Assembly (NCBI RefSeq): GCF_001540865.1
Contig: NC_033640.1
Location: 4,573,409-4,637,408, forward strand
DNA length: 64,000 nucleotides
Reading direction: 5' to 3'
Source: Ananas comosus
Lineage: Eukaryota > Streptophyta > Magnoliopsida > Poales > Bromeliaceae
This document shows positions 3,483 through 63,209 of this stretch, piece after piece (the stretch's first letter is position 1; every line of letters begins with the position of its first letter). Both the position numbers and the translations under genes were made by a program. The notes below the pieces were generated by a model. That model was not told the origin of the DNA. It ran no database searches and saw only the letters and a list, made by a program, of their open reading frames with translations.

Positions 3483-4914
3483 TCCAACCATTACCTACTA
3501 CCAAGTAGTAATTGTCACTTGTATGTTTACATGTCAATTTCTATTTCCAATTAAGGACCTACACAAGGGTAGTCCGGCTTGTGCCGCCTAATTACCCGTG
3601 ATAGCTCCAACATTCCCACTCTAGGAATGAGTCTATCCCACCCAGCCCTGTAGGCTACCCAAAACCACACGAGCGAGCATATGTCGCGAAGGCCAACTCC
3701 GAAGCGCCGGCTTATGGGAAGCGACCCTCACAAGCATGTGCAAATAAGCACAAATGGCAAGCAAGTGTGATCATTATCTCAAGTACCCGGTCATCATGTC
3801 TCGAACATGATACAACACTAGCAACCCCAAAGGTTTAGTTCTATGTCAATGTAGAGATTTAGCCGTTCACTAAGTCTAAGGCCACTTTATGACATTATCG
3901 TTTATTATGTCAATTCATGTTCCAAGCCGAATGCCACTTTATGACATTATATAATCCCTATGTTTAGCACATGTCCATTGTTCTCAAACAAGTAAAAGCT
4001 TGTCATTTCAACACATCTAACATGATTTCTAACATCTCATGAAAATGCCACACACTAGCATTGTACTACATACATATCTCACTACTACATAGGGAGGAAA
4101 TATCATGATACATAACATATGTATTTTAATCATTCTAAAATTCATTTATACTTTATCTAGCATGAATATGCATAAATTTTCATTTTACAATAAAGAGTAG
4201 AACATAAGGGGAGTTCACCCATTTCGGTGAGGTCAAACCCACCAAGAACTCCTTGCAACCCTTTCGTTTGCGCGAACGAAGGTGCCCACAAGTCTCCTAC
4301 CTCCCTAAAGAAAATTCTAAGAGGGTTAGACGAAACGAACGAACACCCAAAGTGTTCATCTTTAACTAACCCAAGATAAGGGTTAAAACTCACCTAAGTG
4401 TGGAAAAACCCTCTCAAATCCCAAATGGAAGCTAGAGCACTCCTAATCCAACCTAAAGAAAGGTTTTAAATCAATCAATTGAGCTCCCAAAGCTACAAAT
4501 CAAAAATTTTCAAATAAACCCTAGATTTCTCATTTCTAGGGTTTCTACACAAAAACCTTCAAAAACATGATCCAAAATAGGAAAACATGTTACTAACCTC
4601 TTAAGAAGCTCCAAACTAAACTTGAAGTGAGCTAGGGTTGAAAATCTCTCCTCCAACAAGTCCCAAACCTTGCTCCAAAGCTTCTCCAATGGTGGAGAAG
4701 ACCACCAACAAGCAAAGAGAGCAAAAAGAGGTGATTAATCCTAAAAAATCCCAACAAAATAGAAGAAGATCAAAGAGAAGGAGTGGAGGGCTCCCTACCT
4801 TGCTCTCCATAGGTTTCAAGCTCAGGGAACACAATGGGGGCGTGGGGGTATATGTAGTGTTGCTACAATTCCAAAAGCACCCCTAAGAAATCAGCAGACT
4901 GCGGTCTGCACTGC

Positions 4915-5069
4915 GTACCGGTACCACGGGCTGGCGTACCGGTACCAGGCAGCCGAGCTCGTCAACCCAATCCTCGGGTTGGGAAGCAGACGCACTGGGT
5001 ACCGATACCAGCCTGATGCAGTACCGGTACCAGGCCAGTACCGGTACCAGGTCGATGCGGTACCAGTAC
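4915..5069 (-). promoter_or_regulatory. Palindrome array in unit a (GGTACCGGTACC type)
   Basis: Six sites of GTACCGGTAC or one-base variants start at 4915, 4936, 4999, 5021, 5038 and 5060. Spacings are 21, 63, 22, 17 and 22 bp. This is the 2-4-2 layout seen elsewhere with one terminal pair missing. In sense orientation the array lies about 60 bp upstream of a TATA-like box. The regulatory role is inferred from position only. Confidence 0.6.
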
Positions 5070-5682
5070 CCTGCTGCGCAGAGCCCAACCCGAGAGCAAC
5101 CCAATCTCTACATTTTCGAGATTTTGGCGCTAAGCATTCACCCTCGCTCCTCGGGATGCGAGTCATAGGTCGGAACACTGTCTACGACCCTCCAGAATAC
5201 CTGAAAAAACTCAGAACACAGATCAAACACTCGAACCTTGCAATTTGCTAAAGTTCAGTGTGTTACACTATACGTGAAGCAACTATGATGCCTCAGGTCC
5301 GAGGAGTACTTCACACAACTGTAGCAATGAACTTGTCATTGGCGAGTATAGAACCATGTGACTGTTCAACTAAATAGTCACGCTCAGTGTACTTGTTCTC
5401 TAACAAGCACCTGTATGCTTGTTCTAGTGTCCCTACACTAGTGACTTGAGATTCGTCACCTCAATTAGAAACATAGCATACACCAGCCTATCCAGAATAT
5501 CACCGTCCCTATAATATTCCTCTGGTTAGGAGCATTTAAAGAGTCTCGTACAGAAAAAGACATATCTCAAATTCCTAACTCTTAGGAATATGTATTTTCA
5601 AACAAAGACTCTATGGACGATTCAAGTCAATATTGCACTGCTATACAATAGATATGAATAGAATATCTACCCTTATATTGTG

Positions 5683-8415
5683 TGTAATATACCGAAAGTT
5701 CGGAAAATGAATATCGAACTTTAGTCAAATTGACCAAAGAGCGAAGATGGTACACTTCGAAAAGTCCGAAGGTGTTAAAATGATCAAAAGTGCGTTATGG
5801 GAGGTTTTCGAGAGCTAAAGAATCAAAAACCTGCAAACTGCAGTTTTTGAGCTCTTGGGGACCGGTCCCTGGTGGGAGAGACCGGTTCCCGAACGCGTGA
5901 GAAATGAGAAAAGCTGAAAATCGGCTAAGTCCCAGAAAATTAGCTCTCGGGAACCGGTCCCTGCGGGGAGAGACTGGTCCCCGAGAGACCGGTCCCCCAA
6001 AGAGAGACCGGTCGCATTGCGCGGGAGCCCTGGCTGCCGCAGGGAGGAGCTACGAGAACCGGTCCCTTGTCGGGGAGACCGGTCCCCGCACACGAAATCT
6101 GCCCAGTTTGAGCAATTTAATAAGATAAAAGCTGAGGGGTTTAAATGCAATTATGCATTATATGAGCTATGTATGAGGGGTGTATGAGATATTTCCTCTC
6201 ATTCTCACCCTCTCACACTCTACTCTCTCTCTTTCTCTCTCTGGAAGACAAGAAGGAAAAGAAAGAAGAGAAGGAAAAGAAGGAAAAGAATAAGAAGAAG
6301 AAGAAAAAGAAGAAGAAGAAGAAGAAGAAGAAAAAGAAGAAGAAGAAGAAGAAGGTGAAGAAGAAGCCAAGGAGTGAAGCTACCTCCTCTTCTTCCCCTT
6401 TGGAGCAATATAGGAGCAAGCTTAAAGGTAAGCTTGAACCCTATTCATGGTAGAACCCAAATTAGGGGTTTGATTAAGCTAAGAATGATTTTTATAGAAC
6501 CTTTAGAGTATTCGAAGCTTTCTTTTGCTTCCTTTAGAGATCAAACCATGGAATGGGTCGAGGTGGTGAAGCTTGAAGGAGAGCTTCAACCCCTCTCATG
6601 GTAGAATCCAAATTAGGGTTTGGATTGAACTAAAGATGGTTTTTATGAAGTCTCTAGAGTAGATTGAAGCTTCTTTTGTTTCCTAATGAGATCAAACCCT
6701 AGGTTTGATATATGTTATGAGCTAGGGCACCCCAAATTGGGGCTTTTGCTCGTGATGTTTCTAAAGTGCAATTGGCCCTCTAGAAACCTAATTGGGGGTA
6801 TTTCCGACGCGTTGGTGCGGTCGGTTGGAGCAAACGAAAAGCCTACGCAAAGTTATGACCAAATAAGCCTAATTTGGCTTCGTTAACTCACAGGTAGCGA
6901 GCCGGGTGTCTAAAAATTCCAAGAAAATCATCGGAGCACCTTTGAGAACCTACGAGGTGGGTGGTGCTATCCAAACTCGTTGAACTTCCTTCTATACCTA
7001 ATGTGTCATTCAATTGAGCATATGTTATATACATTGTTGCATGCATCGCAGGGTATATGTAATGAGAATAATGTAATGTTGCATGTTGTGAGTACAATTT
7101 GCCTAATGAGATGGTTGAGAACCCCTATGAATGTTTAACCCTATATGTATGCATTAGGTAAAATGTGAGCACCTAAGTGAGGCAAAAGAACAAAGTGACA
7201 CAATGAGACATAGATCGAGTGGCATTCGATAATGTAAAGTGATGTGACACTAGAGTTAGTGTGGGACAAAGAATCCATGTGACGTAAAGGACAATGATAA
7301 AGGCTAAAGTTAATGTAAAGTGTGGCATTTGAGAACAAAGAATAGAGATAATGCAAAGTGGGGCATAAAGAACATGTAAAGAGCAAAGAACAGTGATTGC
7401 TAGAGTTAGCAAAATAAAGAGATGTAAAGAACACTAGAGTCAGTGTAATGACATGATTGAACTTATAATCCTTAGAGTTAAGGATTCGATCATACTTGCT
7501 ATGAGTTCCGTGCTCGAGGGCGGTCGCTCCCCCTCGGGCGATGCGCTCCGGAGTTTTGCATCACGGGTTGGAGTAAACCCGAGGACGGTCTTAGCGGGAG
7601 GAAGCTGAGGGCCCGCGATGATGGACTTAATGTGGGCAAGTTAATGTGGCGAAACCCCCGGGTTAGCCGTGAGATTAAAGAACAAAGAACAAAGTTTAAA
7701 GAATAAAGAGTAAAGAACAAAGAACTTGCATACTTGCATGATTTACATTGAGCATACTTCCTGCTTTATTGTTCAGGCATATTAGCATCATGATTATAGT
7801 TTGGTTACAATTCTGCTTATCCTTTCTATTATGCCTGAGTTAGTCCTAGTGGGAAAGTCGATGAGATTGGGGCCGAACCCACTGGAAACTTCGTTGTAGT
7901 TCTCACCCCACTATTTTCACAGAGCCGGGAGCGAGCGAAACGGCGAGCGACCACGGTAAAGGTATCGCACCTTAGTCAGAGGCCACCCGAGTTGGGTTAT
8001 TTACATTTTGTAGTAGCATTCCCTTTTATCATCTTTTGTATTTGATGATTTAAGATGTTAATGTATAAAGCAAAGAAAGAAAAGATTGTAAAGTTTATTT
8101 TGAGGCAATGTGATGTAAAAAGAAATGATGCAAGTGATGTAATGAAAGGTAAAGAATCATGAATATGAAGGTTAAATGCAATGTATGTGATCAAAAGAGA
8201 ATCATAGTACTTGTGTAGATGTTTAGTTTCCTTTCTTTCATTCATGGCTATTGCTTACCCTCATGTAAGCCGTTTGTGTATGTTTTCGCTAGTGCACTTT
8301 TTTTTGAAAATGTACATGTGATAAGCCTTGGGCGGACAGGGAAAACTCTGTCCGTTCGGTGTCTGTTTGACGTGCTCGGGCCGGCCCAAATTGGTATCGG
8401 TCCCGGGGCGTGACA
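5683..8415 (+). mobile_element. Del/Tekay-like solo LTR (unit b)
   Basis: It starts TGTAATATACCGAAAG and ends CCCGGGGCGTGACA, with TTGTG at 5678-5682 and 8416-8420 as a perfect duplication. Sense order is: palindrome array 5861-6083, pyrimidine-rich leader near 6200-6240, GA-rich tract 6240-6370, donor AAAG/GTAAGC at 6428, hairpin at about 7885-7903, acceptor TTTTCACAG near 7922, and a second hairpin at about 8332-8357. Unit m at 55489 is a close relative along its whole length. Confidence 0.87.
5861..6083 (+). promoter_or_regulatory. Eight-site palindrome array in unit b (GGACCGGTCC type)
   Basis: ACCGGT cores, most flanked by GGG/CCC, start at 5861, 5881, 5953, 5973, 5988, 6007, 6058 and 6078. 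Spacings are 20, 72, 20, 15, 19, 51 and 20 bp, giving groups of 2, 4 and 2. One core is ACTGGT. The array precedes the pyrimidine-rich leader region by about 100 bp. Confidence 0.65.
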
Positions 8416-9231: not shown

Positions 9232-11921
9232 TGTCACGCCCGGGTACCAGCGGAAGCATATCCGGCACGTGCACAGACCCGCCATACACCTGCAGTATAT
9301 AAGGCGTCTACAAAGAAAGCAAGTCGATAGGAAGTAAAATAAGAGAGAATCCTATCCTGATATCAGAGCAATGTACAAGTCGATATATATATATAAAAGA
9401 ACAAAGAGTGTACAATCCCAAAATCTCGACAGAAGAGAAGTATCACAACAGAAACATCGGGATCAACAGTAAATATACATCACGGGTATACAAAAAACAT
9501 CTATACAACGGTGGTCACTCTATACAGTGGACATCACCCTCGGCCGTAGCCCGAGTAACAAGGTGATCGACTAGCACGCTCCTAGTAGTGCCTAGCTAGG
9601 CGCGACTCCCTTGCCACGATCCCTAGCCTCTCCTGTAGATAGCTCTGTAAAAACAACCACCAAAAGGGCGTGAGAACTATTAACAATAGTTCGCCAGTGG
9701 GTAAGCGCCAGCTCGTCGGCGAATTCCACCATTAGGCTCAAGATGTCATAAAATGAAAGCAAAATTAATAATTGCATGATTTATAGCTGATGCTAGTAAG
9801 TAATAACATGTAATCAACATGTAATAGCTTTCTACAGTAATGAACCATTGCATAAAAGAGATATCAGCAACTTCTGTAATCATGAGCATAGACATGATTA
9901 TAAGCACGAACATAAAATGACTACTGTACACTTTAAGTAATAACATTCATTACGCTCTTTTTCATTTTAGTACCTCCTTTCAATCTCACAGGGACTACCC
10001 AAGGTAGTCAGCTTGCGCGCGCCTAATGGCCCCGTGGTAGTATACACTCCCCACGCAATCCATTTCGGCACACCATCCGCACGGCGAGCAAACTGTCGCG
10101 TAGCCAACTCCGGAGTGCCGGCTGCAGGGAGCGACCCTCACAAGCGTGTGCGAATGAGCACGATGGCAAGCAAGCAAAGTCCATTGACCACATGTCCACA
10201 ATTTTCATATTTCATTGCAAATGTTCTTACCCTCGAATCCTCTGATCGGAATGTCAATACACAAATAGGAACAAAGCTAGTATCCACTAGTTTGTATTCA
10301 TGTAATGGTAAAGCTATCACATGCAAATTATAACTTTCCACTAGTATGGCACTATCAACATAGTCATAAGCATTCTCATAGTTCTCTACATTAGAGCCAA
10401 GAGAATGTCATTGTTCTCTACTTTTAAGTGGCATCCTACACTGTGTTCATAAGGCCATTCAACTGATTGAATAGTGAATAGAAATACTTTCATGTTATAG
10501 TGTCTCTATATCATAGAAACATAATAAACTGATCTCCTGATTGTTCTACTGAACTAAACAAGAATACTTTAATGCATGAGTACTTTTATGCATGAATGCT
10601 CATTTCACATATGATAAACGTCATGATGACGAATTCCGAGCCCTTTAACAATCACATAGGCATATAATTAAACCACGTCTATAATACATATAGAACATAG
10701 GGGAGCTTCACTTGCTCTGGTTAGGTCAAACCCACCTAGTACTATGCTCCCAATAATCACAAGAAGTCGAAGAAAGTCGGCTCCAACCCTGCTGAAAACA
10801 AACATTAACACCGCGTCAAAATAACGACCGGAATATCCGATTTCGGCCTAAATTACACTTAGTACTGAGTAATCCCTTAAATCCCTGTTTTGGGACTAGT
10901 GTAATACCTCAAAATAAGTCTCCAAAAGCTCTCATAAGTCAACTAACGATGATCCAAGGCTCGATCGCATTCACGCTGCGAACAAAATCGAAACGGCATC
11001 AAACTCATCATATTATAGCAATTATGGTCGGAATCTTGCAATTTCAGCTTCCTAACTGAAATTCTTACTCACCTTAGGTTAGAGTACCTTCTAAACCATC
11101 TTCAAAGAGTACAAGTTCAGCTCAATAAAGCTCGAGGACCTGCTGCGAAGAAGTAATCCCCAAATACATCAAGTCGCTCCAATAATTGCATTTAGTTCCG
11201 ATTTATCTTCATAAATGGCTAATCCTCTCAATTAACCTTCAAAGAAGCTTATCCCTAGTCTAAGGAGCTTAATTCACAGCTAATTAATCCAACTTTAATT
11301 GCTGAAATCTCAGAAGAATACAGCTAGAAGCAGAAACTCAAAAGCAATACTCAAATCGACTAATAAAACGTCGATAACGGAAAACTCGAGTCACATACCT
11401 TCTTAAGCTTCCAACCAGCACCTCACTGGTTCAGAGCTGCGAAAAACTCTCCAAAATACTCCCTCACACGTCCACGTAGGCCCTGCGACACATGCGAACA
11501 GCGAAGAACCAACGTTGCGACGAAAACGAGCGAAATCGGCGAATTCTTTGTAGAGAGAGAAAAACCCTAGAGAGAAAGAGAGAGGAAGGTGGAAGAACAA
11601 CCTCCTGAGTTCCAGCAACCATTACTGAGCTCCCAGAGTCGTGCTGGGATCAAATAGGTGAGAGCAAGATGTGAAATTACCAAACTACCCAAGCTGCCAC
11701 GAATCTGCCAGCTTGTACCGGTACAAGGTGATGGCTGTACCGGTACAACAAGCAGAAAATTGCTGATTTTCGCAGATCAATGCAATTTCTCACTTTTAAC
11801 CCTCCAATCACTCTCTAACTTGGTCAAAAACTTGTCCAAGGCTAATAGAACATGTAGAAGAGTTCCACACATCAATCCACACACTCGAACTCTGCAATTT
11901 GCGAAAGTTCAGTGTATTACA
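9232..11921 (-). mobile_element. Del/Tekay-like solo LTR (unit c)
   Basis: It starts TGTCACGCCCGGGTACC and ends AGTTCAGTGTATTACA, with AAATT at 9227-9231 and 11922-11926 as a perfect duplication. Sense is minus. It interrupts the copia leader. It has the conserved hairpin (9674-9692), an AGAGCT/CTGT splice-like site near 9645, and only one palindrome pair (11715 and 11737, 22 bp apart) between the LTR start and the leader. Length is 2690 bp, with no coding domain. Confidence 0.87.
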
Positions 11922-14722: not shown

Positions 14723-16551
14723 TGTCACGCCCCGAGTCCACACCGGAAGCCCACGAGGACGTCAACAGACCCACCGAATGGTCAGGGTTTCCCTTGTCTA
14801 AACGAATTCCAAGGGGTTACATTTGAGAAGTCTCCACAACACAAGAATCAAGATGAAATACAGAATAAACAAACGACATGTATCAGAGCACTATCTACAA
14901 GCTAAACTGCTGTACATCATGTACTACATCAAATAATTCTCAATCCCAAAAAAGTACAAGGAAAAAGCCCTGGCCCTCGCAGTGCATGCATGTAGTATAG
15001 AGTAGCACACTATCTAGTGGTCCAGTAATGTCTAGGCATGCTGGTAGGAGATGCTATCTACTGCGCGATACCCCTCGCCTCGATCAGCCGACTGTATACG
15101 TACCCTAAAAAGTAAACCACAAAAGGGTGTGAGAACTACTGAATAGTAGTTCCCAGTTGGTACGGTCGACGATAACCACGGCCTTCCCACTAGGTCTACT
15201 GCAGGCGAGAATAGTGAAAGAACAGTAAAGAATGCGATAAATGTATAACTAAAGATAACTGCAAGTACAGTAAAGTCTGCTATAAATAGATATCTGACTC
15301 TGATCAGAACAGGGAATGTATCTACTAATCACTTTACTGAAAGGAATAACTGAATATAATAGAAACAGATCCATATACCTACTGAACTCTCATGCCCTTG
15401 TATATGTCGTAAAAGTCAGAAAAGAGCTGGTTAGTGCATGCACCAAAGCTACTGCTACTAAACAAATGTTGTACTAATACCCAATCGCAACGGCCGACTC
15501 ATACGTCCGGTCAAACCTACACCCGCCTATTGCCCGGAATCGCACTCCCACAGGTGCACCGCTGACAGCTAGGCTCTGCCCCCAGCCCGAACACCACTCC
15601 CACAGGTAGGTCGTCTTCCCAAAGGCACACATATCTTTGCTATAACTAGCCAACGTCCAGAGCGGCACTCGAAAGGGAGCGACCCCTACCGAGTCTAATA
15701 GCAAGTATCTCAGTCAAACCACTATGGCTCTCCAGTCTATGGTCTATATCATGGTTAACAATATCACGATACCCAATACACTGTCCTCAGCATAGTCATG
15801 GAGAATACAAGAAGTCGACTGTCACAAGAGAATGTGCACACAGAATAAACTACACTCTCTATGTCCACATATTTGCACACTACCACCGTGCTACCCGCGG
15901 CCTCTATCACAAAGTTCATGGCATGTACGAGAAAAATAAATAAGAGATGACTCACATAGATGGTTCAAATGAACAACGCACATAGATACCTCACCTAACT
16001 TATGTTTTGTATAGCATTTAGGGACAATAGACAACTCATCACTATCCACAAGATGTCGACTAGCCTCCCACGACCTAAGTCAGAATATCTAATATGAGAT
16101 ATGGCTAATAATAAGTATGTCCCGTCTAGTAAATCATGGGATGGTCAAGAATTACTAGAAATGACCCAATGATCTCAACTCAATCATATAGGTCCAAAAA
16201 TCTATCCACACGTGTCTCACGAATCCTCGGCCACAAAGTAACCAAAAGAGCGGTCGTCAAAGGTCTCGTGAAGCCTAGACCTCTATCATGTAATTCACGG
16301 CATGCTCAATGCAAGGAAAAAGGAAATAACTCGTATTCATGCTTCAAGTACGATATTGTAACACACTGGGCCCTTGCAAATGGCGAGGTTCGAGTGATTG
16401 GTCGTGTTCTGAGCTTTTCCAGACTTGCTGGTAGGTCGTTGACTGTGTTCCGACCTATGACACGTGTCCCGAGGAGTGTGGTACGAAGCCTTGCACCAAA
16501 ACCCAAAAATTTGGATTTTGGTCAGCTCTCGGATTGGCTGTCTGGCGGGCT

Positions 16552-16797
16552 TGTACCGGTACAAGGCTGTGCTTGTACCGGTACAGAGCCGCGAGCTTGC
16601 AAACCCGAGCCTCGGGTTTGCATTTTCGCAGGTCTTGTACCGGTACAAGGATGGTCTTGTACCGGTACAATGTTGATGGTTGTACCGGTACAGCCACCGG
16701 GCCTGTACCGGTACAGTGCTGCAGAACAGCGCAACCCGAGCCACGGGTTTGGATTTCGTGGACCTTGTACCGGTACAAGGGACCGTGTACCGGTACA
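16552..16797 (+). promoter_or_regulatory. Eight-site palindrome array in unit e (TGTACCGGTACA type)
   Basis: Eight copies of TGTACCGGTACA or near copies start at 16552, 16574, 16636, 16658, 16681, 16704, 16766 and 16786. Spacings are 22, 62, 22, 23, 23, 62 and 20 bp. Both 62-bp gaps contain a further dyad, AACCCGAG...CGGGTT. The array ends about 55 bp before a TATA-like stretch. Reading frames through it encode only repetitive Cys-Thr-Gly-Thr or Val-Pro-Val-Gln peptides. Confidence 0.7.
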
Positions 16798-16913
16798 AGG
16801 CGGCAGATTTCGCACAGTTTGGACTGCAGGGGTGTTTTTGAGTTTGTATCTCTTTTATTTATTCCCCCACGCCCCTTAGCTGTTTCTTTGAGCTTGAAAC
16901 AGCAGGAGACAAG

Positions 16914-18728
16914 GTAAGGGAACCCTCTCCACCCTTCCACTTGGATTTGATCCTCTTTTTGCATGGTTTTTGATGGATCCTTCTTCTCCTTTTTCCTTTT
17001 GGTGCTATTCCACTATGGTTGAAGCCAAGAGCTTGGATTTGGAGCTAAGTGGAAGAGAGATCTTGGAACCTAGAGCATTTGGAGCTTGATTTGAAGCTTC
17101 TAGAGAGGTTAGCAACATGATTTGAGCCTTTGATCCATGTTTTTGCTAAATTTTGAGTTGGAACCCTAGATTGGATACTTAGGGTTTATTTTGGGGATTT
17201 TGATTCTAGGGCTTTAGAGACTAGATTGGTGGGTTTAGAACCTTCCTTGGGCTTAGATTGGATGAACCCTAGCTCTCTTTTGGAGCTTAGGAGAAGATTT
17301 CTATTCTTGAGGTGAGTTTGACCCTTTTTGCTCCTAGGTTAAAGATTGAGCTTATTGCTCTTCGTATCGATTGGATGACACCCTTTTTGATGTTCCTAGG
17401 GTGCTAGAAAGCTTGTGGAAACCTCCGTTGGAGCAAACGAAAAGCTTCGTTGTCGTTGGTGGGTTTGACCTAGCCTATAATATGAGAAATCCTCATATTT
17501 GGTGATAAGTGTTTCGTATACTATTAATTCATGCATGATCATGCTAAATACATTTATTATGATTTTTAGAATGCTCAAAATGCCCATGTTATATGTAATG
17601 AAATTTCCGGACCTCTATGTAGTAGCGAGTTGCTGGACAGATCTAGTGATGCATTTGGCATTCTATATGAGACTTGGTTTCATGCTTCTATAGTGTAAAT
17701 GGGCTTTAATTCGTGCATTTAAACTTAGGTTTATTTGAGACATGATGAATGACAAGTTGCCATTTATTGACATCAAACTTAGATGCATGTGAATTAGAGA
17801 GCTAATGTCATCAAGCGGCATTGAGCTCAGGACAAGTGTGAACCTAGTGGATAGGGCCATTAAGGGATTTGGAAAACTTGTGGAACATCAAATTGCCTAA
17901 GTGTCATTAAGGGGCACTAGGCGTAGCAAATGTTGAAATTTCACATTGTGACTTAAACTAGATCTTCGGGATGCTAGTGACTATACCATGTTAGAGACAT
18001 GAGAATTGGATACTTGAGACTTGGACTATGCTTGTTTGCCATTTGTGCTCATTCGCACATGCTTGTGAGGGTCGCTCCCTACAAGCCGGCACTCCGGAGT
18101 TAGCCTACGCGACTTTTGTTCGTCCGTGCGGTATTGAGAAGCCTACGGGGTCGAGTGGGACAGACACATTCCAAGAGTAGGGATGTTGGGCTACCACAGG
18201 CACTTAGGCGGCACAAGCTGGACTACCTTGGGTAGGTCCTCAAGTTGGAAATGGAAATCGACACGGTGTTGAATATGAACAATCACTACTAGATAGGATT
18301 AGTAGTTGGATTACTTGGACACGCTTATGATATAGCATTGGTACATTTAGTATACTTGTCGGTTTCATTATTGCATCGTAGTATACTCGGTTGTTTGGAT
18401 AGTTTTACCCTTATGCATGGACATATTGCAACGTGAGGTTTACTTGTTATTATGTTGAGACATATTAGTATGCATCGGATATATTACCTTATGATAGCGT
18501 AGATGTACATCACCATGACATCATGCTTATTGGAGACTTAGTAGTATAGCATTTCATTCATGCTTTCTTTCAGCAGTTTTCGTGTTCACTATTTATTACA
18601 TATTACTTTATGTTGTTACTTACCCTTTTCTTTTGGGGCCTAGTGGTGCATTGAGCTGAGGTCAGTAATTGCCCACTGGGAACTATAAATTATAGTTCTC
18701 ACGCCCTCTTTTTCTCGATGTTTTTCAG
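16914..18728 (+). other. Predicted leader intron inside the LTR (unit e)
   Basis: CAAG/GTAAGG at 16914 and TTTTTCAG/AGCC ending at 18728 form a plausible plant intron. The same donor type occurs after the leader in units b (6428), h (24909), k (44575), l (54876) and m (56181). The same acceptor position occurs in b (7922), f (36063), h (26171), k (45815), l (58965) and m (57731). Splicing has not been shown; the call rests on conservation of the signals. Confidence 0.4.
18680..18698 (+). other. Conserved stem-loop before the predicted 3' splice site
   Basis: GAACTATAAATTATAGTTC is a near-perfect palindrome, 29 bp from the predicted acceptor. Equivalent hairpins with different stems occur at the same place in the other Del-like units, for example 2579-2598, 15133-15152, 36012-36030 and 58920-58939. 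The paired changes suggest that pairing, not sequence, is kept. Confidence 0.6.
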
Positions 18729-19764
18729 AGCCTTCCACTCAGGGTGAGGCCAGGGATCGCGGGAAGGGAGTTGCTTCGAGCTAGCTTCCTTCGAGGACGA
18801 GTTGATAGGTGGTCTACCTCTCGATTTTTGTTTTATTTTGCGAGAGGTGGAGCGTTTTTGCCAGTGTACTAGAGACCACCATTTTTGTACATATGAGACA
18901 GACATTGTACTTCTTATGACTCTTTTTATTGACTAGCTTTACTTCTTTACCTTGGTGTAGATGTTAGAACTATATTCGCTCTGATATCATTAGTTGCTTG
19001 TTATTTCACTTCTTCTAGTTGTCTACTACTTGCTTTTACTTCCGCTTTTATTCTAGACGCCTTATATGTGTAGACATATGGCGGGTCTGGGCACGCTACC
19101 GGGAGGGCCTCCGCCGGTCCCGGGGCGTGACAGATATACATTGTCAAAATGGACATACTTACACTTCATGTTTAAATTCATGACTCCTATGCATACTCAT
19201 GTTTATACTCCAGTATTATGTCTCATAACCATGTGTCGAATGTCTCAATATTATGCTCGATATTGTAGAATCCATGTACGGATGGTCAACTACAATATAC
19301 AATACCAAATAGACATAGAAGAAAATTCGCCGTTTTCAGCGACCGGAACCTACCTTAGTGTGATACAGCAGCTAAAGCAAGAAATCCGCCACTCACAGGA
19401 TTTTCCTCAGCTCACGGTCGCTCGGAAACACTAAACAAGTCAAATCATTTGGAATTACAATCAAAAGGCTAATTTTCTAACCAAGCTCAATTCATGCAAA
19501 TTGAACGTCAATTGCCTTAAATTGTGACTAACGGGACATGTATGGTACTTAAATTCGCGCTCTAGGACATCCTGCAACCGTCAATTTGACATTAGAATTG
19601 TGAATTTTGCTAATTGCTTCAATCATTCCCGTAATTCCTTTCCTTCCATCTTTTCTCCTTTTCTCTCTTCTTTTCTCTTTTTTTCCTTCTCTTTTCCTTT
19701 TCTTTCTCTCTTTTCTTCCTCTTTTCCTCTCTCTTCTTCTTTTCTCTTTTTTTTTAATAGTCTT

Positions 19765-24219: not shown

Positions 24220-26636
24220 TGTAACATAGCGATTCCCCGTAAGCCGTACAGAGTTCCGTCGAAATGTGCGGAACGCGAAAAGGAATGAGTTACTATAGGC
24301 TAGAAGTGCATTGGAGCCTATATGTAAAGTATAAAGGGACCCGAGAGAGTGAAACTGCAATTCTGGAGAAGTCCCAGAAATTTTACTCTCGGGGACTGGT
24401 CCCTTGGGTGAGAGACCGGTTCCCGAATGTTGATCAGCCGAACGAGGTGAAAAATCGGCTAAGTCCTGGAAATTGAGTTCTCGGGAACCGGTCCGCGGGG
24501 GAGAGACCGGTCCCGAGAGACCGGTTGCATTGGGAGGAGACCGGTCCCTTTCTGCGCAGATTGCAGGATAGCTCTCGGGGACCGGTCTCTCCTTTGAGAG
24601 ACCGGTCCCCGAGCCCGAAATTGCCCAGTAAGGGCTGTTTGCAAAAATGAAAAGGTGAGGGGCTTATGTGCAAAAGTGACATGGGTTGGATGTATAGAGG
24701 TGAGAGATGGGGTTGGCTCCCATTTCTCTCACACCCTAACCCCAAAACCTTTCCCTCTCTCTATCTAAAAACCTCTCCTTTCCCTCTCCCTTTCTCTATA
24801 GGGCTTGGACCAAGAGGGCTTTTGGGAGGAGCAAGCTTGGAGAAGAAGCTCTCCAAGGTGTAGAGCAAGCTAGAGCAAGGCTTTGAAAGAAAGCTTTAGA
24901 CTCCAAAGGTGAGTTCTTGTGATTTTAAATTAGGTTTTGGGTTTTTGCTTTTAGTTGCTGCATCTAGGGGCTTCTATGGTATTTTCCCCCATGATTATCC
25001 ATGTTAGAGACCTAGTTGAGGAAGATAATGTTGCATAAGGACCTAACTTTAGGATTTTTGGATTTTGAGGTTCAATCTTGGGATTGATCTCTTTTTAACC
25101 TAATTGGTAGGTCAACAAACACATCGGTGCGCTCGGTTCGGCGATACGACGAGCGTGTGCGAAGATATTGGAAAAAGAAGCCGAGTCAGTATAGATTGCC
25201 GCAGCTTGCGGCGAAAGTATCTAAAAATTGTGAAAACAGAACCACGGCATCCTAGTATCACATAAAGGTAGGGGGTGCTATCCGAAAACACCGAGTCTCT
25301 TTCTATGTCTATGTCACTATTTTTGAGCATGTTTGTATTATTGCATTCTTGCATGTAGGGTAAGGACTGGTATATGTTGATTGCATCAATTATCTGCTTA
25401 AGATTATTGTGAACGATATAAGCACACGTGAACAAGAAAACGAATAACCCTATATGCATGTGAATGTGAGAAAAGACTATGACCATAGTAAATAACGGTG
25501 ACATTGACTATAGTGACTCAATTGGCATTGAAATGAGTATAATTAAACAAAGTTTAACCCAAGTGGCATTATGTGTATTATGGCATCAGGACCATTGTGG
25601 CTTAGTAAAGTGACATACATGATTAGGTAAAGACCTATCATCGGTATTGTGGCATCATGGTTAAAGGAAATGATTAAACAAGGTTTAGCTTTTCTGGCAT
25701 TGAGACTGGTTGGCCATACCTCCTCAAATTGAGGATAGGATCATACTCACATGTATTGGTTCCGGCTTGTGGGAGGTCGCTCCTCACAAGCAGTGTACTC
25801 CGGAGTGAAAAAGCACCACGGGTGAAGGTGCCCGGCGAAGATCCTTCGGGTGGTTGTGCCTTGTGCCTCCCCCGTTAGATGGGATATGTGGACTGTGAGT
25901 CGTGGTAAACCAGAAGCACCCCGGGTTGATTGGGTAAAGGCCAAAGGAAAGTGAAAAGGACATGCATGCATAATCATCATGTATTGAATATGAATATCTA
26001 TCTATGATTTGCTTTCTTGCAGGCATTGTATTAGAAGTGCATTAGTTGGTTCGTTATTCTTCTTTATTGAAATACATATGCCTGAATTAGACCAAGTGGG
26101 CGAATCGGCGTGGTCGGCGGCCGAACCCACTGGGAACTTCGTTCTAGTTCTCATTACCACTAACCCTGCAGATCCGTGCGCGAGCGGGGCAGCGGAGGAT
26201 CGAGGCAAGGGTGTTGCGCCGTAGATAGCGGCCTCAGAGTTTATAGGCATACCCTATGCTTTGGCGTACTCAACTGTAGGTGTTGAACTGTATATGATGA
26301 AAAGCAAGAAATGTAAATTATATTTTGGCTAACGTAAGAATGATGTAAGCAATGTATTTTGGTTAAAGGCAAATGTGAGATAAATGTATTAGACGACTTG
26401 TGTTTGATTCAAATGAAATCAAATGACTTGTATATTGAATGCTTAGATAGTTTCGATGCTTTCACTTGTGGTTGTTGTTTGCCCTCGTGCAAACCTTGTA
26501 TATCTTGCAATTCTCTTAGTGATTTGCTTGTAATATACTTGTTATTAGAGCCTTGGGCGGACAGGGGAGGTACTGTCCGTTCGGCGTCTGTCATGTGCTC
26601 GAATCCGACCAAATTGGCGGAGCTCGGGGCATGACA
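24220..26636 (+). mobile_element. Del/Tekay-like solo LTR (unit h)
   Basis: It starts TGTAACATAGCGATTCC and ends GAGCTCGGGGCATGACA. Flanks are ACTCC (24215-24219) and ACTCT (26637-26641), one mismatch. The ACCGGT array starts at 24395, 24415, 24487, 24506, 24520, 24540, 24581 and 24601 (spacings 20, 72, 19, 14, 20, 41, 20). Donor is at 24909, hairpin at 26134-26150 and acceptor at 26171. Host unit g resumes on both sides with matching context. Confidence 0.83.
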
Positions 26637-32315: not shown

Positions 32316-32850
32316 CATCGGAACTTCGATCCGAGCCTTCCAACGCATCAGTTTTACCTTCAATTAGGATTACATGAGATTAATTCTAAGCTAGATCTCC
32401 AATCCTACAAACTCCCATTTTCATGCTTAGGTTCAACATAACCTTCTCATACTCAAAATTCTTAGGAAATTATGGAGTAATCCAAACTTCCATAACCTAA
32501 GAATCTCAAAACTAAGCAATTTAGGGAATTTACATCAAACCCTAACCAAGAGGAGCAAGAGAACTCACCTTGACTCCATCGCTACCCAAGCTCATCTTGT
32601 TCTTGAGCTTCATCAACACTAAAACCACCAACTTCCCTTCAATCCAGCCTCAATATCCTCAAAACCCTTTTGTTGGAGAGATCCTAGAGAGAGAAAGAGA
32701 AGGAAATGAGAAGGAGAAGAGAACAATGCTTCTCTTGCATGAGGAGTGTACCGATGTTGGGGTTGGAATTATATAGGCCCGCAACAATTACCTTTAAACC
32801 CCTCCACAATACTCTTCTCATTTCGTACATTTCAGTCCTTAACAAACTAG

Positions 32851-33078
32851 GTACCGGTACCCACTATCTAGTACCGGTACCAGCTCCTACATCCCGAGCT
32901 GCGTAACCACTGGTTTGCGGCACAGTACCAGTATTCAACTCCAGTACCAGTACCTGACCATTTCGGTACCGGTACCAGCCTCAGGTACCGGTACACAGCT
33001 TACCCTTGTACGAATCCCAAGAGCTGTCCAACATCTCTTCAACTGGGTACCGATACCGCATTGGCCTAGTACCGGTAC
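32851..33078 (-). promoter_or_regulatory. Eight-site palindrome array in unit g (GGTACCGGTACC type)
   Basis: GTACCGGTAC or one-base variants start at 32851, 32871, 32925, 32944, 32966, 32985, 33047 and 33069. Spacings are 20, 54, 19, 22, 19, 62 and 22 bp. Read in sense orientation this is the same 2-4-2 plan as unit e, with different spacer sequence. A TATATAAT box follows 75 bp downstream on the minus strand. Confidence 0.68.
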
Positions 33079-34769
33079 TCAATGTCCCATGTGCATTTCC
33101 GGCAACTACCGGGTTTCGGACTCCGTTTTCGCACCCAATTTGTGCCAAAAACACTCAAACATCTCCGAAACACCTTCTAACCATCCAAACACCTTCAAGG
33201 TTATTCGGGTACCTCGTTTATCATTCACATACCTCACTTTGATCAATTCGATCAAAGTTTGCATTGTGATTCGGGAATTCGGTATGTTACATGTTACATA
33301 TAGAAGTTTTCATACTCTATATAGTAGAGGCTTATAATGTGGATTGGTACGTACACTAAATAGAATGTAATTGTATTTCCTCTTATGCAACATTAGAATG
33401 CGTGATAGAGATGAGTAATTGAATGTCCTATGGGACCTTACATGGTTAGTGGAATTATCGAGTTCAACTTGCATGATAAGTAATATACTTGTTTTAGACA
33501 AGGGCAAAAATGACCTATTGCATAGTAGAGATAAATAGTGAAGTTAAGCATGTGCACTTAACTTAGTTGAACAACTAATTGGGCATTATGACATTGTATT
33601 CGACCTCTAGGTCGCTAGTTGCATTTCATGTTTTAGACATGACGAAAGAGATTTCTATGCTTTTGGGCGAATAAAAAGGGCAATTGCATATAATTGCTTA
33701 GTTGAATGAAAGTTACTTGCATGATGACCATCATACTCCATGAAGTGGAGGTTTGTGTAGCAAGGCATGTGCATGACCTGAATCATGATCTAGTTGACAT
33801 CCTCGTAGCTCATTGAATATGATATTGGTAAGTTGTTCACTTTACACTATAGTGGAAACAGTATACTTATGAAACTGTTATAGTGTAAACAGTATACTTA
33901 TGAAACCCTGTTGGTTCTTGAATAAAATAGAGAACCATCCTTGATAGGATAAATGAGATGTAAACCAGTACATGCTTTAGGCATGTTATGTATCGGTAGA
34001 GACATACCACCAAGTTGATTGAGAATGAAACTTGACATATATGATATAGTACCCGACCTTTGAGTCGATGATTGTGATTCCATGTTTTAGACATGATGAT
34101 TGAGATATGTGGTCTTTAGACTTGATGCTTATGATCACGCTTGCTTCCTTCTGTGCTCATTCACATAAGCTTGTGAGGGTCGCTCCCTACAAGCTGGTAC
34201 TCCAGAGTTAGCCTTTGCGACGACAGATCGCCCATGCGGGATTGGGCACCGAAATGGATTGCTGTGGGGGAGGCTCATTCCTAGAGGGAAAATATTGACT
34301 ACCACGGGGCTATTAGGCACGGCACAAGCCGGAAAGTTATCATGTGTAAGTCCCTCGTTAATTGGGTAAAGATTAAGTAAACTTGACATAGTACATCATA
34401 ATTAGTTGATGCATATATAGTAGATGGGCATACTACTGGATTATTACTTTGTGACGCTACTTGATACATTCGTAGTAGTTGGGCATTGATGTTAATCATT
34501 GTTGCATTGACAACCTTAGTAGTAGTAAATCTATATACACATGTTGATTAGTATAGAAGTATAGCTATATGATGAAAATGAAAGTGAATTACCTGTGCAT
34601 GTAAACTTGCATGTGAATTTGCATATAGACTTGCATATACAAGTACTTGTGCATGTGACAGTAGAAAACTACATACATGTTAAATGACATTATCATGTAG
34701 AGGCATGACTATAATTGAATGTTCAATTTATTGTTAACTGTATGCTTAATGTAGGTTATGGAAACCCTA

Positions 34770-51665: not shown

Positions 51666-51968
51666 CACCGTACAATCTATAGTTTAATTTTTATAGAACA
51701 TTATCTAAAATTTGATATAAAAAATGTCTAATAGTTCAACATACAAAATGAATGAATGAAATACGATGTTATATTATTAAAAAATAATTAGGGGAAGCGA
51801 TTAAAAAGAAATTAGGAAAAGCAACTCTACGAGCAAGTGAAAAAGAGAGAGCAATTAGAGTAAAATTTTGCTAGTTTGGTTTCGTGGGCCAAATAAACTA
51901 AACTTTATATACATATAATTAAAATAAATAATATATATTGCTATATATAATTAAAATATTATATATAG

Positions 51969-52508
51969 AGCAGGACTGCTGTCCTCTCAGGAGCACGGAG
52001 GCCTCCGTGCTCCCAAGCCATTTTCGATGATAGAATTTTCGAATCGACGATCGACTCCATTAGACTTGATCTAGCATATTTGAAGTTTCTAGAAAATTTT
52101 TGCGATTTTTTGATATCATTTACCTAGTGATCGAAAGAGTTCAAAATTAATAATTTTTAATGGTTGATATATGCCGTTTTCAAGTTTAACGGTGTAGAAG
52201 TATTCAAATCAGATAAAATTTTGATACAAAATTCTTTATACTATCTACAACAAGATCAATATTTCTGATCAAAAATTTTAGTGCTATATCACGACGTTTT
52301 ATAGGATTTTTATTTTCAGCCGTTAAAAATTATTGATTTTGAATCCTTTTGATTGGTAGATAAATGATATCGAAAAATCGCAAAAATTATTTTCTAGAAA
52401 CTTCAAATACGCTAGATCAAGTCTAACGGAGCCGATCGCCGATTCGAAAATTCCATCATCGAAAACGGCTCCAGGCCTCCGTGCTCCTGAGAGCACAGCA
52501 GTCCTGCT
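51969..52508. mobile_element. Micron-like MITE family 1, copy 1
   Basis: The ends AGCAGGACTGCTGTCC and its complement form long inverted repeats covering much of the 540 bp. GGAGCACGGAGGCC is repeated near both ends. It is flanked by (TA)n on each side. It is the same family as 62623-63168. Confidence 0.85.
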
Positions 52509-52524
52509 CTATATATATATATAT

Positions 52525-52570
<46 letters not shown>
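52509..52570. repeat. (TA)n and (GA)n microsatellites
   Basis: TA repeats (about 52509-52526) pass into GA repeats up to 52570, between two MITEs. Confidence 0.9.
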
Positions 52571-52575
<5 letters not shown>

Positions 52576-52935
52576 AGCTAGAATACTATCGATAGCAAAC
52601 GGGTTCCGATGCCACCCATTTGTTTTCGATGATGGAGCCTCCAAATCGACGATCGGCACCGTTAAACATGATCTATACCACTTGAAGTATTTAGAAATCA
52701 AATTTCGTACATTTTCAATATTGTTCTCTTATCCATCGAGTGGACACAAAATAAACGGCTGAAAATGAATATTCTTTAAAAAATAATGATAGGAGTCTTG
52801 TAATCAAGATCAAAAGTATAGATCTTGTTTTAAATAGTTTAAAGAATTTTCTAACAAAAATTCAATTGATTTGGATATCTTTACGCCGTTAAACAAGAAA
52901 ACGTCTCATATCGACCATTAAAATTACAAATTTTG
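52571..52935. mobile_element. Micron-like MITE family 2, truncated copy
   Basis: It opens ATTTGAGCTAGAATACTATC and follows the family 2 sequence seen at 62051-62596. It stops near ACAAATTTTG at 52935, about two thirds through, where gypsy-related sequence begins. Confidence 0.75.
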
Positions 52936-55488: not shown

Positions 55489-58202
55489 TGTAATATACCG
55501 AAAATTCGGAAAATAAATATCAAACTTTAGTCAAATTGACCAAAGTGCGAGGATGGTACGCTTCGGAAAGTCCGAAGGTGTTAAAATGAGTAAAAGAGTG
55601 TTGCGGAAGGTTTTCGAGAGCTAAGAATCAAAATTCTGCAAACTGCAGATTTTGAGCTCTCGGGGACCGGTCCCTGGTGGGAGAGACCGGTCCCCGAACG
55701 CGTGAGAAATGAGACGGCCGAAAAATCGGCTAAGTCCCTGAGAAACAGCTCTCGGGAACCGATCCCTCCCCGAGAGACCGGTCCCCCAGAGACCGGTCCC
55801 CTAGAGAGAGACCGGTCACATTGCGCGCAGCAGCTCTAGCTGCACTGGGAGAGCTCTCGGGGACCGGTCCCTAGTCGGGGAGACCGGTCCCCAAACCCGA
55901 AATCTGCCCAGTCCAGGCAGTTGAATAAGATGAAAGTTGAGGGGTTTATTTGCATTTTGGCAACCCATTGAGTATAGTAAGGGGGGAAAATGAGATATTT
56001 CTCTCATTTCACTCCCTCTCCCACTCTCATCTCTCTTTCTCTCTCTAGAAGACAAAGAAGGAGAAGAAGAAGAGAAGGAAAAAGAAAGGAAAAGAAGAAA
56101 AAGAAAGTGGAGAAGAAGAAGAAGGAGTGAAGAAACTCCCTCTCCTTCATCTCTAGCTTGAAGAGGGGGGAAGCTTTGAGGTAAGCTTCAACCCTAATCA
56201 TGCTAAAACCCTAAAATGGGAACTATGTGACCTAGAAATGGTTTTAATGAAGTCTTTTGAGTCTTTGAAGCTTTTCTTTTGCTTCATTTGAGATCAAGAC
56301 CATGGGTTTAGTGTTGGAGGTGAAGCTTGAAGGAGAGCTTCATCCCCTCTCATTGTAGAATCCAAACTAGGGTTTGGATTGAATTAAAGATGGTTTAAAT
56401 GGACTCTTTAGAGTAGAATGAAGCTACTTATGCTTCCCAATGAGATCAAACCCTAGGTTTGATGCATGTAATGAAGCTAGGGCACCCAAATTGGGGCTTT
56501 TGCTCATGGGGATTCCTAAGTGAAATTGACTCTCTAGAAACCTAATTGGGGGTATTTCCGACGCGTTGGTGCGCTCGGATAAGCATTACGAAAGGTCTAT
56601 AAAAAGTTATGGGCAAAATGGCCTAATAGGGCTTCGTTTTGCCGCAGGTAAAGAGCGAAGGGTCTGAAAATTCCAAGAAAGTCATCGGAGCACCTTTGAA
56701 AGCCTACAAGGTGGGTCGTGCTTTTCAAACTCGTTGAACTTCCCTCTATGCCTAATGTGTCATTCAATTGAGCATATGTCTATACATTGTTGCATGCATT
56801 TTAGGGTAAAGTAATGATAAAATGTGATGTTGCATGATTGTGAGTACAACTTGCATAATGTGATGGTTAAGAACCTTATGAATGTCAAAAACCCTATATA
56901 TGTATGCATGAGAGAAAATGTGAGCACCAAAGTGAGGCGAAAGAACAAAGTGACACTATATGATATAGATTGAGTGGCATTGATAATGTAAAGTAAAGTG
57001 ACACTAGAGATAGTGTGAGGCAAAGAATCAATGTGATGTAAAGAATAATGCTAATGACTAAAGTGAAAACAAAGTGGGGCGTAAAGAACAAAGAATGCTA
57101 AAGATAGCCAAAAGTAAAGAAAGGCAAAGAATAATGATTGCTAGAGTTAGCAAAAGTAAAGAAAGGCAAAGAATAATGATTACTAGAGTAGTAATATAAA
57201 GTGATGTAAAGGACACTAGAGTTAGTGTAAAGTCAAGATTGAGCATACAATCCTTTGAGTTAAGGATTCGATCATACTTGCTATGAGTTCCGTGCTCGAG
57301 GGCGGTCGCTCCCCCTCGGGCGATGCGCTCCGGAGTTTTTGCATCACGGGTTGGAGTAAACCCGAAGGACGGTCTTAGCAGGAGGAAGCTGAGGGCCCGC
57401 GATGATGGACTTAATGTGAAGCAAGTTATTGTGGCAAAACCCCCGGGTTAGCCTTGAGATTAAAGAACAAAGAACAAAGAGCAAAGAACAAAGAACAAAG
57501 ATAAAGTGTAAAGTGTAAAGAACGAAAGAACTTGCATAATCTGCATATGTTAATGTTGAGCATACTTCTTGCTTATTTGTTCAGGCATATTAGCATTATG
57601 TTATAGATTGGTTACTATATCCAGCTTATCCTTTCTATTATGCCTGAGTTAGTCCTAGTGGGAAAGTCGGTGATATTGAGGCCGAACCCACTGGGAACTT
57701 TGTTGTAGTTCTCACCCCACTATTTCTACAGAGCCGGGACCGGGCGAGCCGGCGAACAACTGAGGTAAAGGTATCGTGCCTTAGTCAGAGGCCACCAGAG
57801 TTGGGTTTACATTTGTAGTAAAGTACCCTATGATCATCTTTTATACATGATGATAAATGATGTAAAGAAAAGAATGTAATATGTATTTTGAGGTAAATGT
57901 GATGTAAGAAAGACATGATGAAATGATGTAATGAATGTAAGAAATCGATAATGTACAAGTTGGATGTAATGTATATGATCTAAATTGAATCATAGTACAA
58001 TGAATGCTAGTTTTCCTATCTTTCACTCGTGGCTATTGCTTACCCTCGTGTAAGCCGTATTTGTATGTTTCCGCTAGTGCACTTCATTATTTGAAAATGT
58101 ACATGTGATGAGCCTTGGGCGGACAGGGGAAACTCTGCCCGTTCGGCATCTGTTTGACGTGCTCGGGCCGGCCCAAATTGGTATCGATCCCGGGGCGTGA
58201 CA
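55489..58202 (+). mobile_element. Del/Tekay-like solo LTR (unit m)
   Basis: It starts TGTAATATACCGAAAATTC and ends TCCCGGGGCGTGACA, with CTAGT at 55484-55488 and 58203-58207 as a perfect duplication. It closely resembles unit b across its length, so the two are from one subfamily. Array 55666-55888, pyrimidine leader near 56025, donor 56181, hairpin 57695-57712, acceptor 57731 and second hairpin 58119-58143 are all present. Length is 2714 bp. Confidence 0.88.
55666..55888 (+). promoter_or_regulatory. Eight-site palindrome array in unit m (GGACCGGTCC type)
   Basis: ACCGGT cores (one ACCGAT) start at 55666, 55686, 55758, 55777, 55792, 55811, 55863 and 55883. Spacings are 20, 72, 19, 15, 19, 52 and 20 bp, nearly identical to unit b. 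The 72-bp gap contains AATCGGCTAAGTCC, shared with units b and h. Confidence 0.67.

Positions 58203-62592: not shown

Positions 62593-62596
<4 letters not shown>
62051..62596. mobile_element. Micron-like MITE family 2, complete copy
   Basis: The ends AGAGTTGAGCTAGAATGCTA and the complement of TATTCTAGCTCAACTCT are inverted repeats of about 130 bp. It is flanked by TA repeats on both sides. It serves as reference for the truncated copies at 52571-52935 and 63205-63443. Confidence 0.85.

Positions 62597-62622
<26 letters not shown>

Positions 62623-62623
<1 letters not shown>

Positions 62624-63168: not shown

Positions 63169-63204
<36 letters not shown>

Positions 63205-63209
<5 letters not shown>

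What the first reader, a model, noticed from the sequence alone, without database searches (positions are those of the whole stretch)
16552..16797. Eight CCGG-centred palindromes in a fixed 2-4-2 layout, phased at about 21 bp
In unit e the sites TGTACCGGTACA are spaced 22, 62, 22, 23, 23, 62 and 20 bp. Unit g, read in sense, gives 22, 62, 19, 22, 19, 54, 20. Most intervals are close to whole numbers of DNA turns. Such regularity with diverged spacers suggests a scaffold for a dimeric DNA-binding protein or a chromatin mark, placed about 55-75 bp before a TATA-like box. I know of no described plant LTR feature with this architecture.
Basis: partly seen in the sequence, partly recalled or inferred. 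Interest (0 to 1): 0.85.

Follow-up and report, generated by a model that had tools for sequence, protein, structure and literature searches.

The report
Phased palindrome array in plant retrotransposon
A jumping element in a plant genome (probably pineapple) carries, just before its likely promoter, a row of near-identical mirror-image DNA boxes mostly held at steps of whole DNA turns, which looks like a docking strip for a paired DNA-binding protein that controls the element.

Summary
Observation confirmed: eight exact TGTACCGGTACA boxes (P) at 16552-16797, spaced 22,62,22,23,23,62,20, in U3 of a 2,776-bp solo LTR (16357-19132, target duplication GATAT). Pol remains beside related LTRs are Ty3/gypsy, probably Del/Tekay; the plant is probably pineapple. 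P is constrained: over 19 copies it differs at 12/1812 bases, array spacers at 277/2200. The 62-bp gaps hold a second palindrome Q (AACCCGAG-N-CTCGGGTT), within 1 bp of the midpoint in the 21 of 31 gaps that have it whole: P-P-Q-P-P steps are about 2-3-3-2 turns. Genome-wide, pairs of P cores 61-64 bp apart number 3033, 56-59 bp apart 91. Phasing across families is real but imperfect: 28 of 237 intervals are 14-18 bp, half a turn off, and one dedup setting lost significance. '2-4-2' is fixed in unit e's subfamily and shared by unit g, not by other families. Best reading: promoter-proximal sites for a dimeric protein; binder unknown. Closest known: Sirevirus RM boxes (Ty1/copia). A new variant, not a new category.

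The parts
16352..16356 (.). target-site duplication GATAT, left
16357..19132 (+). solo LTR, 2,776 bp, TGTAACACACTGG...GGCGTGACA; many homologous hits in other loci begin at 16354-16357
16552..16563 (.). P box 1 TGTACCGGTACA
16574..16585 (.). P box 2
16602..16618 (.). Q palindrome AACCCGAGCCTCGGGTT, 30.5 and 31.5 bp from the flanking P centres
16636..16647 (.). P box 3
16658..16669 (.). P box 4
16681..16692 (.). P box 5
16704..16715 (.). P box 6
16733..16749 (.). second Q palindrome AACCCGAGCCACGGGTT, 31.5 and 30.5 bp from the flanking P centres
16766..16777 (.). P box 7
16786..16797 (.). P box 8, promoter-proximal
16856..16863 (+). TATA-like TATTTATT, 58 nt after P box 8; TTATAT, TTATAA or CTATTTATT stand at the same alignment columns in the copies that reach there
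19133..19137 (.). target-site duplication GATAT, right
4914..5070 (-). unit a: array in an LTR of the same clade (81% at the LTR start), boxes GGTACCGGTACN in sense, sense intervals 22,17,22,63,21
32850..33079 (-). unit g: 8 boxes of type GGTACCGGTACC (three degenerate) in a diverged LTR, sense 22,62,19,22,19,54,20, followed by CTATAT
55663..55891 (.). example of a type-B array (GRGACCGGTCYC), 20,91,15,19,52,20 read on the plus strand; LTR sense only from single-linkage orientation

Best explanation
The array is the upstream regulatory region of the U3 promoter of a group of Ty3/gypsy (probably Del/Tekay chromovirus) retrotransposons. Each P box (core GTACCGGTAC, dyad on the CG) is read by a homodimeric, probably host-encoded, DNA-binding protein; boxes are paired two helical turns apart so that two dimers can contact each other on one DNA face, and pairs flank a second palindrome Q (AACCCGAG-N-CTCGGGTT) at three turns on either side, read by a second dimeric factor. 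The complex acts on the TATA-like box some 55-75 bp downstream, most likely as an activator. Shown here: the boxes, their positions, constraint on P (and less on Q), helical steps across families, place in U3. Inferred: protein binding, dimers, activation, host origin of the protein.
For: P nearly invariant against spacers over 19 copies: 12/1812 v 277/2200 mismatches, Q 36/629, upstream LTR 250/3693, downstream 247/1441; CpGs inside P 3/302 v 65/897 outside (two of the 19, L046 and L047, are identical). Between the two halves of unit e, P 48/48 and spacers (Q included) 53/77 identical. 18 of 18 fully read copies keep eight boxes with each interval within 1 bp. Pol beside array-bearing LTRs is PR-RT-RH-INT. 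Steps: of 69 consecutive intervals above 24 bp, 62 lie within 0.2 turn of a whole number at 10.5 bp (0.42 expected); after merging equal-length gaps 65% alike, 34 remain, R 0.50, p 0.0008. A second sample, the first 50 listed places on contig 1, peaks at 10.35 bp, R 0.60, among periods 6-16; 36 of 50 within 0.2 turn. Whole genome: 3033 pairs at 61-64 bp, 91 at 56-59. Q within 1 bp of the midpoint in all 21 gaps that hold it whole, of 31 gaps of 50-66 bp. Unit g's eight boxes have best period 10.35, R 0.885. Core kept while arms and layout change between families.
Against: No binder, expression, methylation or start-site data. 28 of 237 consecutive intervals are 14-18 bp, half a turn off; the pair histogram also has off-phase counts at 33-35, 44-46 and around 68. 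Within the subfamily spacing is not kept better than its flanks: 8 of 132 intervals changed, all by 1 bp, about what the upstream indel rate predicts (7 in 3705 bp), so phasing rests on comparisons between families that share ancestry. In the first table merging gaps at 80% and 70% identity gave p below 0.001 and 0.0008, at 62% p 0.23. In the second table the best period was 10.85-11.0, not 10.5. Unit e alone shows no special coherence at 10.5 bp. Loci L006-L044 were chosen because they hold P-N10-P, which inflates the 22-bp class, and the 19-23 class (140 of 237) is on phase by definition. A TATA-like pattern was found in only 12 of 29 LTRs.
Confidence: 0.66

Rival explanations
1. RNA or DNA hairpins: the palindromes are kept because transcripts (or cruciforms) fold, as a source or decoy of small RNAs, or in packaging.
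For: Unit e folds far better than shuffles: RNA -172.7 kcal/mol, z -13.3; DNA z -15.0. Type-A gaps alone fold a little (38 gaps, mean z -1.2), and the arms beside Q in unit e's first gap are complementary (z 3.4; second gap z -0.1). Small RNAs map to palindromes of maize Sireviruses (Bousios 2016, seen only as described in passages of PMC5311732 and PMC10760457).
Against: Short spacers that would have to pair in the same stem are no more complementary than spacers of other arrays (30 modules, p 0.74; letter shuffle p 0.088), and type-B gaps do not fold (18 gaps, mean z 0.3). In type-B pairs the inner arms are complementary at position 2 in only 19% of 47 pairs (outer arms 57%). A hairpin does not call for 10.4-bp steps.
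Confidence: 0.13
2. Chromatin or methylation element (insulator, nucleosome phasing, demethylation island): P with its CG and CCG sites marks or protects the promoter.
For: CpG observed/expected 0.97 in the array against 0.13 just downstream and 0.64-0.78 in the rest of the LTR. Helical phasing also fits nucleosome wrapping.
Against: Constraint covers the whole 12-mer, not CG alone: 0-3 mismatches per position. No methylation or nucleosome data here.
Confidence: 0.1
3. By-product of duplication and homogenisation without function.
For: Short spacers inside unit e are more alike than letter shuffles (direct z 0.5 to 4.1) and its halves may be an old duplication (z 0.7 to 2.8); type-B short spacers are more alike within arrays (0.411 v 0.297, 19 comparisons); box-to-box deletion explains the change from unit e's layout to L013's.
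Against: Spacers diverge while P stays; over all type-A arrays short spacers are hardly more alike within than between arrays (0.321 v 0.297) and long gaps hold no decayed box (5.26 v 5.72 in shuffles, 31 gaps); 51-54 and 71-75 bp classes are not multiples of 21.
Confidence: 0.06
4. Sites for a protein of the element itself (e.g. integrase or Gag) used in packaging, dimerisation or targeting.
For: Arms change together between families while the core stays, as if partner and site co-evolved.
Against: The pol and gag pieces read here show only ordinary domains; internal regions were not fully examined, so an extra gene is not excluded.
Confidence: 0.05

Closest known systems
Sirevirus LTR 'repeated motif' (RM) boxes, Ty1/copia (Bousios et al. 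2010, PMC2829016; abstract, sections 6 and 9-12, and passages of others seen)
   Same: Palindromic CG-rich boxes with element-specific arms, at least 8 per element in the 13 elements that have them (3-14 in the 3' LTR), mostly in the upper half of a plant LTR, CpG-rich, a short way upstream of a conserved TATA box; boxes alike against diverged flanks; function proposed as regulatory and untested there.
   Different: There the authors call it Sirevirus-specific and absent from the other copia elements they tested; here it is in Ty3/gypsy. Their signature is CGG...CCG with or without bases between; here the order is CCG/CGG overlapping as ACCGGT. I saw no statement on fixed spacing or helical phase in the parts seen ('spacing' occurs once, in a reference title), and no second centred palindrome.
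[quoted passage not shown] 2016; not seen, known here only through passages of PMC5311732 and PMC10760457)
   Same: Clustered palindromes with strong predicted folding in the LTR regulatory region.
   Different: No small-RNA data here; spacer pairing beyond P and Q not above chance.
Tandem or palindromic enhancer boxes of Tnt1/Tto1 type copia LTRs (recalled; Tnt1 box I is mentioned in a passage of PMC2829016)
   Same: Short repeated activator boxes in U3 bound by host factors (recalled).
   Different: Few copies and no helical lattice as far as I recall; other superfamily.
Del lineage of pineapple (PMC6022998, passages seen, part of the abstract among them)
   Same: Dominant Ty3/gypsy lineage, 16.4% of a 382-Mb assembly, matching the size of G000 and the abundance of these LTRs.
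   Different: No LTR palindromes in the passages seen; lineage not confirmed here by a tree.

Membership tests
Sirevirus RM box | Carrier is a Ty1/copia Sirevirus (PR-INT-RT-RH) | tested here: not met
   Bodies beside array-bearing LTRs in L008, L014, L017, L024 are in gypsy order PR-RT-RH-INT
Sirevirus RM box | Palindromic boxes in high copy number (at least eight per element) in the LTR upstream of TATA | tested here: met
   8 in unit e; other arrays here have 2-9
Sirevirus RM box | CGG-CCG core signature | tested here: not met
   Core is ACCGGT, halves in the opposite order
Sirevirus RM box | Boxes bound a CpG island | tested here: inconclusive
   CpG o/e 0.97, G+C 0.57 over 246 bp; island length criterion not applied
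Sirevirus RM box | Multiple AGGGGGAG polypurine tracts before the 3' LTR | tested here: not met
   No AGGGGGAG directly before the array-bearing LTRs of L008, L014, L024. Over all loci scanned the octamer is scattered; one, L024:8955, stands just before a TGTAACACCC that could be another LTR start, not followed up
Del/Tekay chromovirus | gypsy-order pol | tested here: met
   the rve hits themselves are below the curated cut-off, Integrase_H2C2 and SH3_Tf2-1 are above it where found
Del/Tekay chromovirus | Chromodomain at the integrase end | tested here: inconclusive
   Chromo hit at the expected place in 3 of 3 pieces, E 1.4e-4 to 1.7e-3, all below the curated cut-off
Del/Tekay chromovirus | Long TG...CA LTR with 5-bp target duplication | tested here: met
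   2,776 bp, GATAT
Del/Tekay chromovirus | Placement in an RT tree | not tested
   no reference RT set used

The most novel reading that the evidence does not exclude
The U3 array is a helical-lattice enhanceosome: two dimeric factors (P and Q) arranged at 2-3-3-2 turns, exchanged as a module between LTRs and re-specified in concert (TGT/ACA, GGT/ACC, GRG/CYC arms on a fixed ACCGGT core) in an arms race between a retrotransposon lineage that fills a sixth of the genome and a host regulator or repressor of the ACCGGT core.
Probability: 0.2. Interest if true: 0.85.

Novelty: new variant of a known kind. Interest (0 to 1): 0.6.

Why it matters
Palindromic U3 arrays were reported as Sirevirus-specific; finding them, with another core, in Ty3/gypsy elements suggests that plant retrotransposons arrived at the same promoter design twice. 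The thousands of natural variants with preferred steps make the old question of whether plant regulators work by helical-face geometry testable by counting and by simple reporters, and would point to a host factor that controls a main repeat of this genome.

Tried and rejected
Tandem duplication of a 20- or 60-bp unit: not supported for type-A arrays as a whole, not excluded for unit e itself or for type B. Sirevirus membership: rejected. Hairpin selection: not supported beyond P and Q. Spacing constraint from indels inside the subfamily: no signal. Whole-array phase in unit e alone: weak. e and g spacers: near-random similarity (z 2.1; e against L013 z 12.9), so the shared 2-4-2 layout is old homology or convergence. 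L046/L047: looked like an LTR pair, is a segmental duplicate. Type-A and type-B arrays fall mostly into one single-linkage group (54 of 55); with shorter flanks 43 of 55 at the loosest thresholds, and some links come from neighbouring LTRs inside one flank; direct alignment shows a shared LTR start and shared leader with different arrays between.

Paper searches: pineapple with LTR retrotransposon and palindrom* (4 papers), chromovirus/LTR/palindromic, the box sequences (20 of 355 listed, unrelated by title), Tekay/LTR/palindrom*, ACCGGT with plant binding motifs (12 of 50 listed, none of these holding ACCGGT). No listed title or abstract start describes such an array in a Ty3/gypsy element; some searches gave the Sirevirus and pineapple papers. 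Of PMC8774480, PMC6911290 and PMC11963269 I saw passages only; none bears on the array.

Rows dropped: L001-L005 (short or duplicate of the window) were left out of the array tables. The first table used exact ACCGGT; the second also up to 2 mismatches to TGTACCGGTACA, 77 arrays; the third a looser core rule, mixed-type clusters split and arrays with fewer than two exact cores dropped, 76 arrays. The p-values use jittered lengths and do not model a tree.

Full report
What is there. Eight exact copies of TGTACCGGTACA lie at 16552-16797 with the stated intervals. They are far beyond chance: 52 ACCGGT in the window against 6.56 expected; the exact P-N10-P pair 1882 times in the genome against 45 for the reversed control; GTACCGGTAC pairs 32-62 bp apart 5051 against 97. 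The window lies in a 381,958,007-base assembly of 3128 contigs. A published pineapple assembly has 382 Mb with the Del lineage at 16.4% (PMC6022998, passages); its scaffold number differs (3380). I take the genome as pineapple on size and abundance, which is not proof.

Where it sits. Many homologous hits in other loci begin at 16354-16357. There the sequence starts TGTAACACACTGG and it ends ...GGCGTGACA at 19132, with GATAT on both outer sides: a solo LTR of 2,776 bp. In L014 an LTR 80% alike at its start follows pol remains directly; array-bearing LTRs in L008, L017 and L024 also follow pol remains, and their domains come in the order protease, RT, RNase H, integrase, which is Ty3/gypsy. L017's LTR gave no hit to unit e's. 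A chromodomain hit lies at the integrase end in three of three pieces, below the curated cut-off. So the arrays are in U3 of gypsy elements, probably Del/Tekay. A TATA-like pattern follows the last exact box by 53-58 nt in 9 of 25 LTRs of unit e's wider clade, by 36 in L008, 66 in L017 and 73 in unit g; the other 17 of 29 gave none.

Constraint. Unit e has at least 39 further places at 88-95% identity over 425-544 of 544 bp (40 of 2971 candidates were scored). I aligned 19 (11, 8; two, L046 and L047, are identical). P differs from unit e at 12 of 1812 bases, Q at 36 of 629, the other array spacers at 277 of 2200, the upstream LTR at 250 of 3693, downstream at 247 of 1441. CpGs in P changed at 3 of 302 positions, outside at 65 of 897. 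Fisher's p of 1.7e-59 for P against spacers ignores relatedness. The 18 copies read through the whole array hold eight boxes; 8 of 132 intervals differ, each by one base. But the upstream indel rate (7 in 3705 bp) predicts about as many changes, so this does not by itself show selection on spacing.

A second palindrome. 29 of 31 type-A gaps of 50-66 bp hold at least a 6-base piece of AACCCGAG-N-CTCGGGTT. Twenty-one of the 31 hold the full form with at most 4 mismatches, and in each of these its centre lies within 1 bp of the gap's midpoint, 30.5-32.5 bp from each flanking P centre. Unit e thus reads P-22-P-31-Q-31-P-22-P-23-P-23-P-31-Q-31-P-20-P. The six gaps of 51-52 bp carry half a Q with its centre 16-17 bp from one of the two P boxes.

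Phase. In 77 arrays pair distances cluster at 20-23, 39-41, 51-54, 61-63, 71-75, 82-86, 91-95, 101-108 and 122-126, with near-empty stretches at 24-33, 47-50, 55-59, 76-79 and 96-100; off-phase counts stand at 14-18, 33-35, 44-46 and around 68. Merging equal-length gaps above 30 bp at 80% identity left 75 and at 70% left 52, with p below 0.001 and 0.0008; at 62% 34 were left and p was 0.23. With a looser box definition, 76 arrays give 237 consecutive intervals: 140 are 19-23 bp (on phase by definition), 28 are 14-18 bp and off phase, and of the 69 above 24 bp 62 are within 0.2 turn of a whole number at 10.5 bp, 0.42 expected. Merging these at 65% leaves 34, R 0.50, p 0.0008, best period 11.0. 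The first 50 listed places are a second sample not chosen by layout except for the 32-62 range: spacings 33, 39-42, 45-46, 50-52, 54 and 60-62 only, peak period 10.35 bp, R 0.60, 36 of 50 within 0.2 turn; 45-46 I read as sums of 22 and 23. Whole genome: 3033 pairs at 61-64 bp (control 45) and 91 at 56-59 bp (control 3). The loci L006-L044 were picked for P-N10-P, so the 22-bp class is inflated by choice. The short class, mostly 17 bp in type A and 15 bp in type B, is a real exception; it may be two dimers on opposite faces, which is inference.

Layouts and arms. Unit e's clade includes 23,17,22,63,20 and 22,23,23,63,20 arrays; the latter look like unit e with one box-to-box segment missing. 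Unit g has the 2-4-2 layout in a diverged LTR with near-random spacer similarity (z 2.1). Type-B arrays have the same ACCGGT core with GRG/CYC arms; in L011 and L019 a type-B array follows an LTR start 80-81% alike to unit e's over about 100 bp, and L011's leader is 76% alike over 115 bp. So the array behaves as a module that can be exchanged, and arms are changed together. Type-B boxes are not symmetric at position 2 (33% complementary, 48% after shuffling, 116 sites).

How it most likely works. A dimeric protein reads each P, pairs of dimers meet across two turns, a second dimer reads Q at three turns, and the assembly acts on the TATA-like promoter. The sites, constraint, geometry and position are shown; the protein, its origin, and activation rather than repression are inferred. 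Hairpin formation is strong in unit e (z -13.3) but follows largely from repeated self-complementary boxes; short spacers show no extra complementarity over 30 modules.

Known work. Bousios et al. 2010 (PMC2829016; abstract, sections 6 and 9-12, passages) described palindromic CGG-CCG RM boxes in Sirevirus LTRs shortly upstream of a TATA box and called them Sirevirus-specific. The present arrays look built like these, but fail membership on superfamily, core order and polypurine tracts. I found no report of such arrays in Ty3/gypsy elements, nor of helical phasing, in the listings of searches and the parts of papers seen; most subscription papers are not in the library. Hence: a new variant of a known kind.

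Noticed in passing
window 5861-6083, 24415-24601, 54327-54567, 55666-55883: Type-B arrays (GRGACCGGTCYC) with polar, not symmetric, arms and a recurring 14-15-bp step between pairs.
   Followed up: partly
window 11717-11744 and loci such as L018, L034, L041: LTRs that carry only one P-P pair (22 bp); they may account for many of the 1882 genome-wide exact pairs.
   Followed up: partly
L013:448-646: ACCGGT boxes at 22,63,22,63,23 mostly without the usual arms (GTC, TAA, GAC): layout kept while arms are lost or changed.
   Followed up: no
L046, L047 (contig C2850): Two copies of a pol fragment joined directly to a unit-e type LTR, 8.2 kb apart, 98% alike over 3.3 kb: a segmental duplicate.
   Followed up: partly
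L024:8955-8974: AGGGGGAG followed by TTTGTAACACCC, a possible polypurine tract and LTR start of another element.
   Followed up: no
window 60038-60248: Tandem repeat of a 114-bp unit, 1.9 copies, 98% matches.
   Followed up: no
window 25692-26634 / 29085-30089 and 51932-52706 / 62459-63205: Two inverted repeat pairs, 75-76% identical, perhaps older elements in opposite orientation.
   Followed up: no
L026:692-1000: A type-B LTR abuts a type-A pair across an N, possibly a mis-join of the assembly.
   Followed up: no
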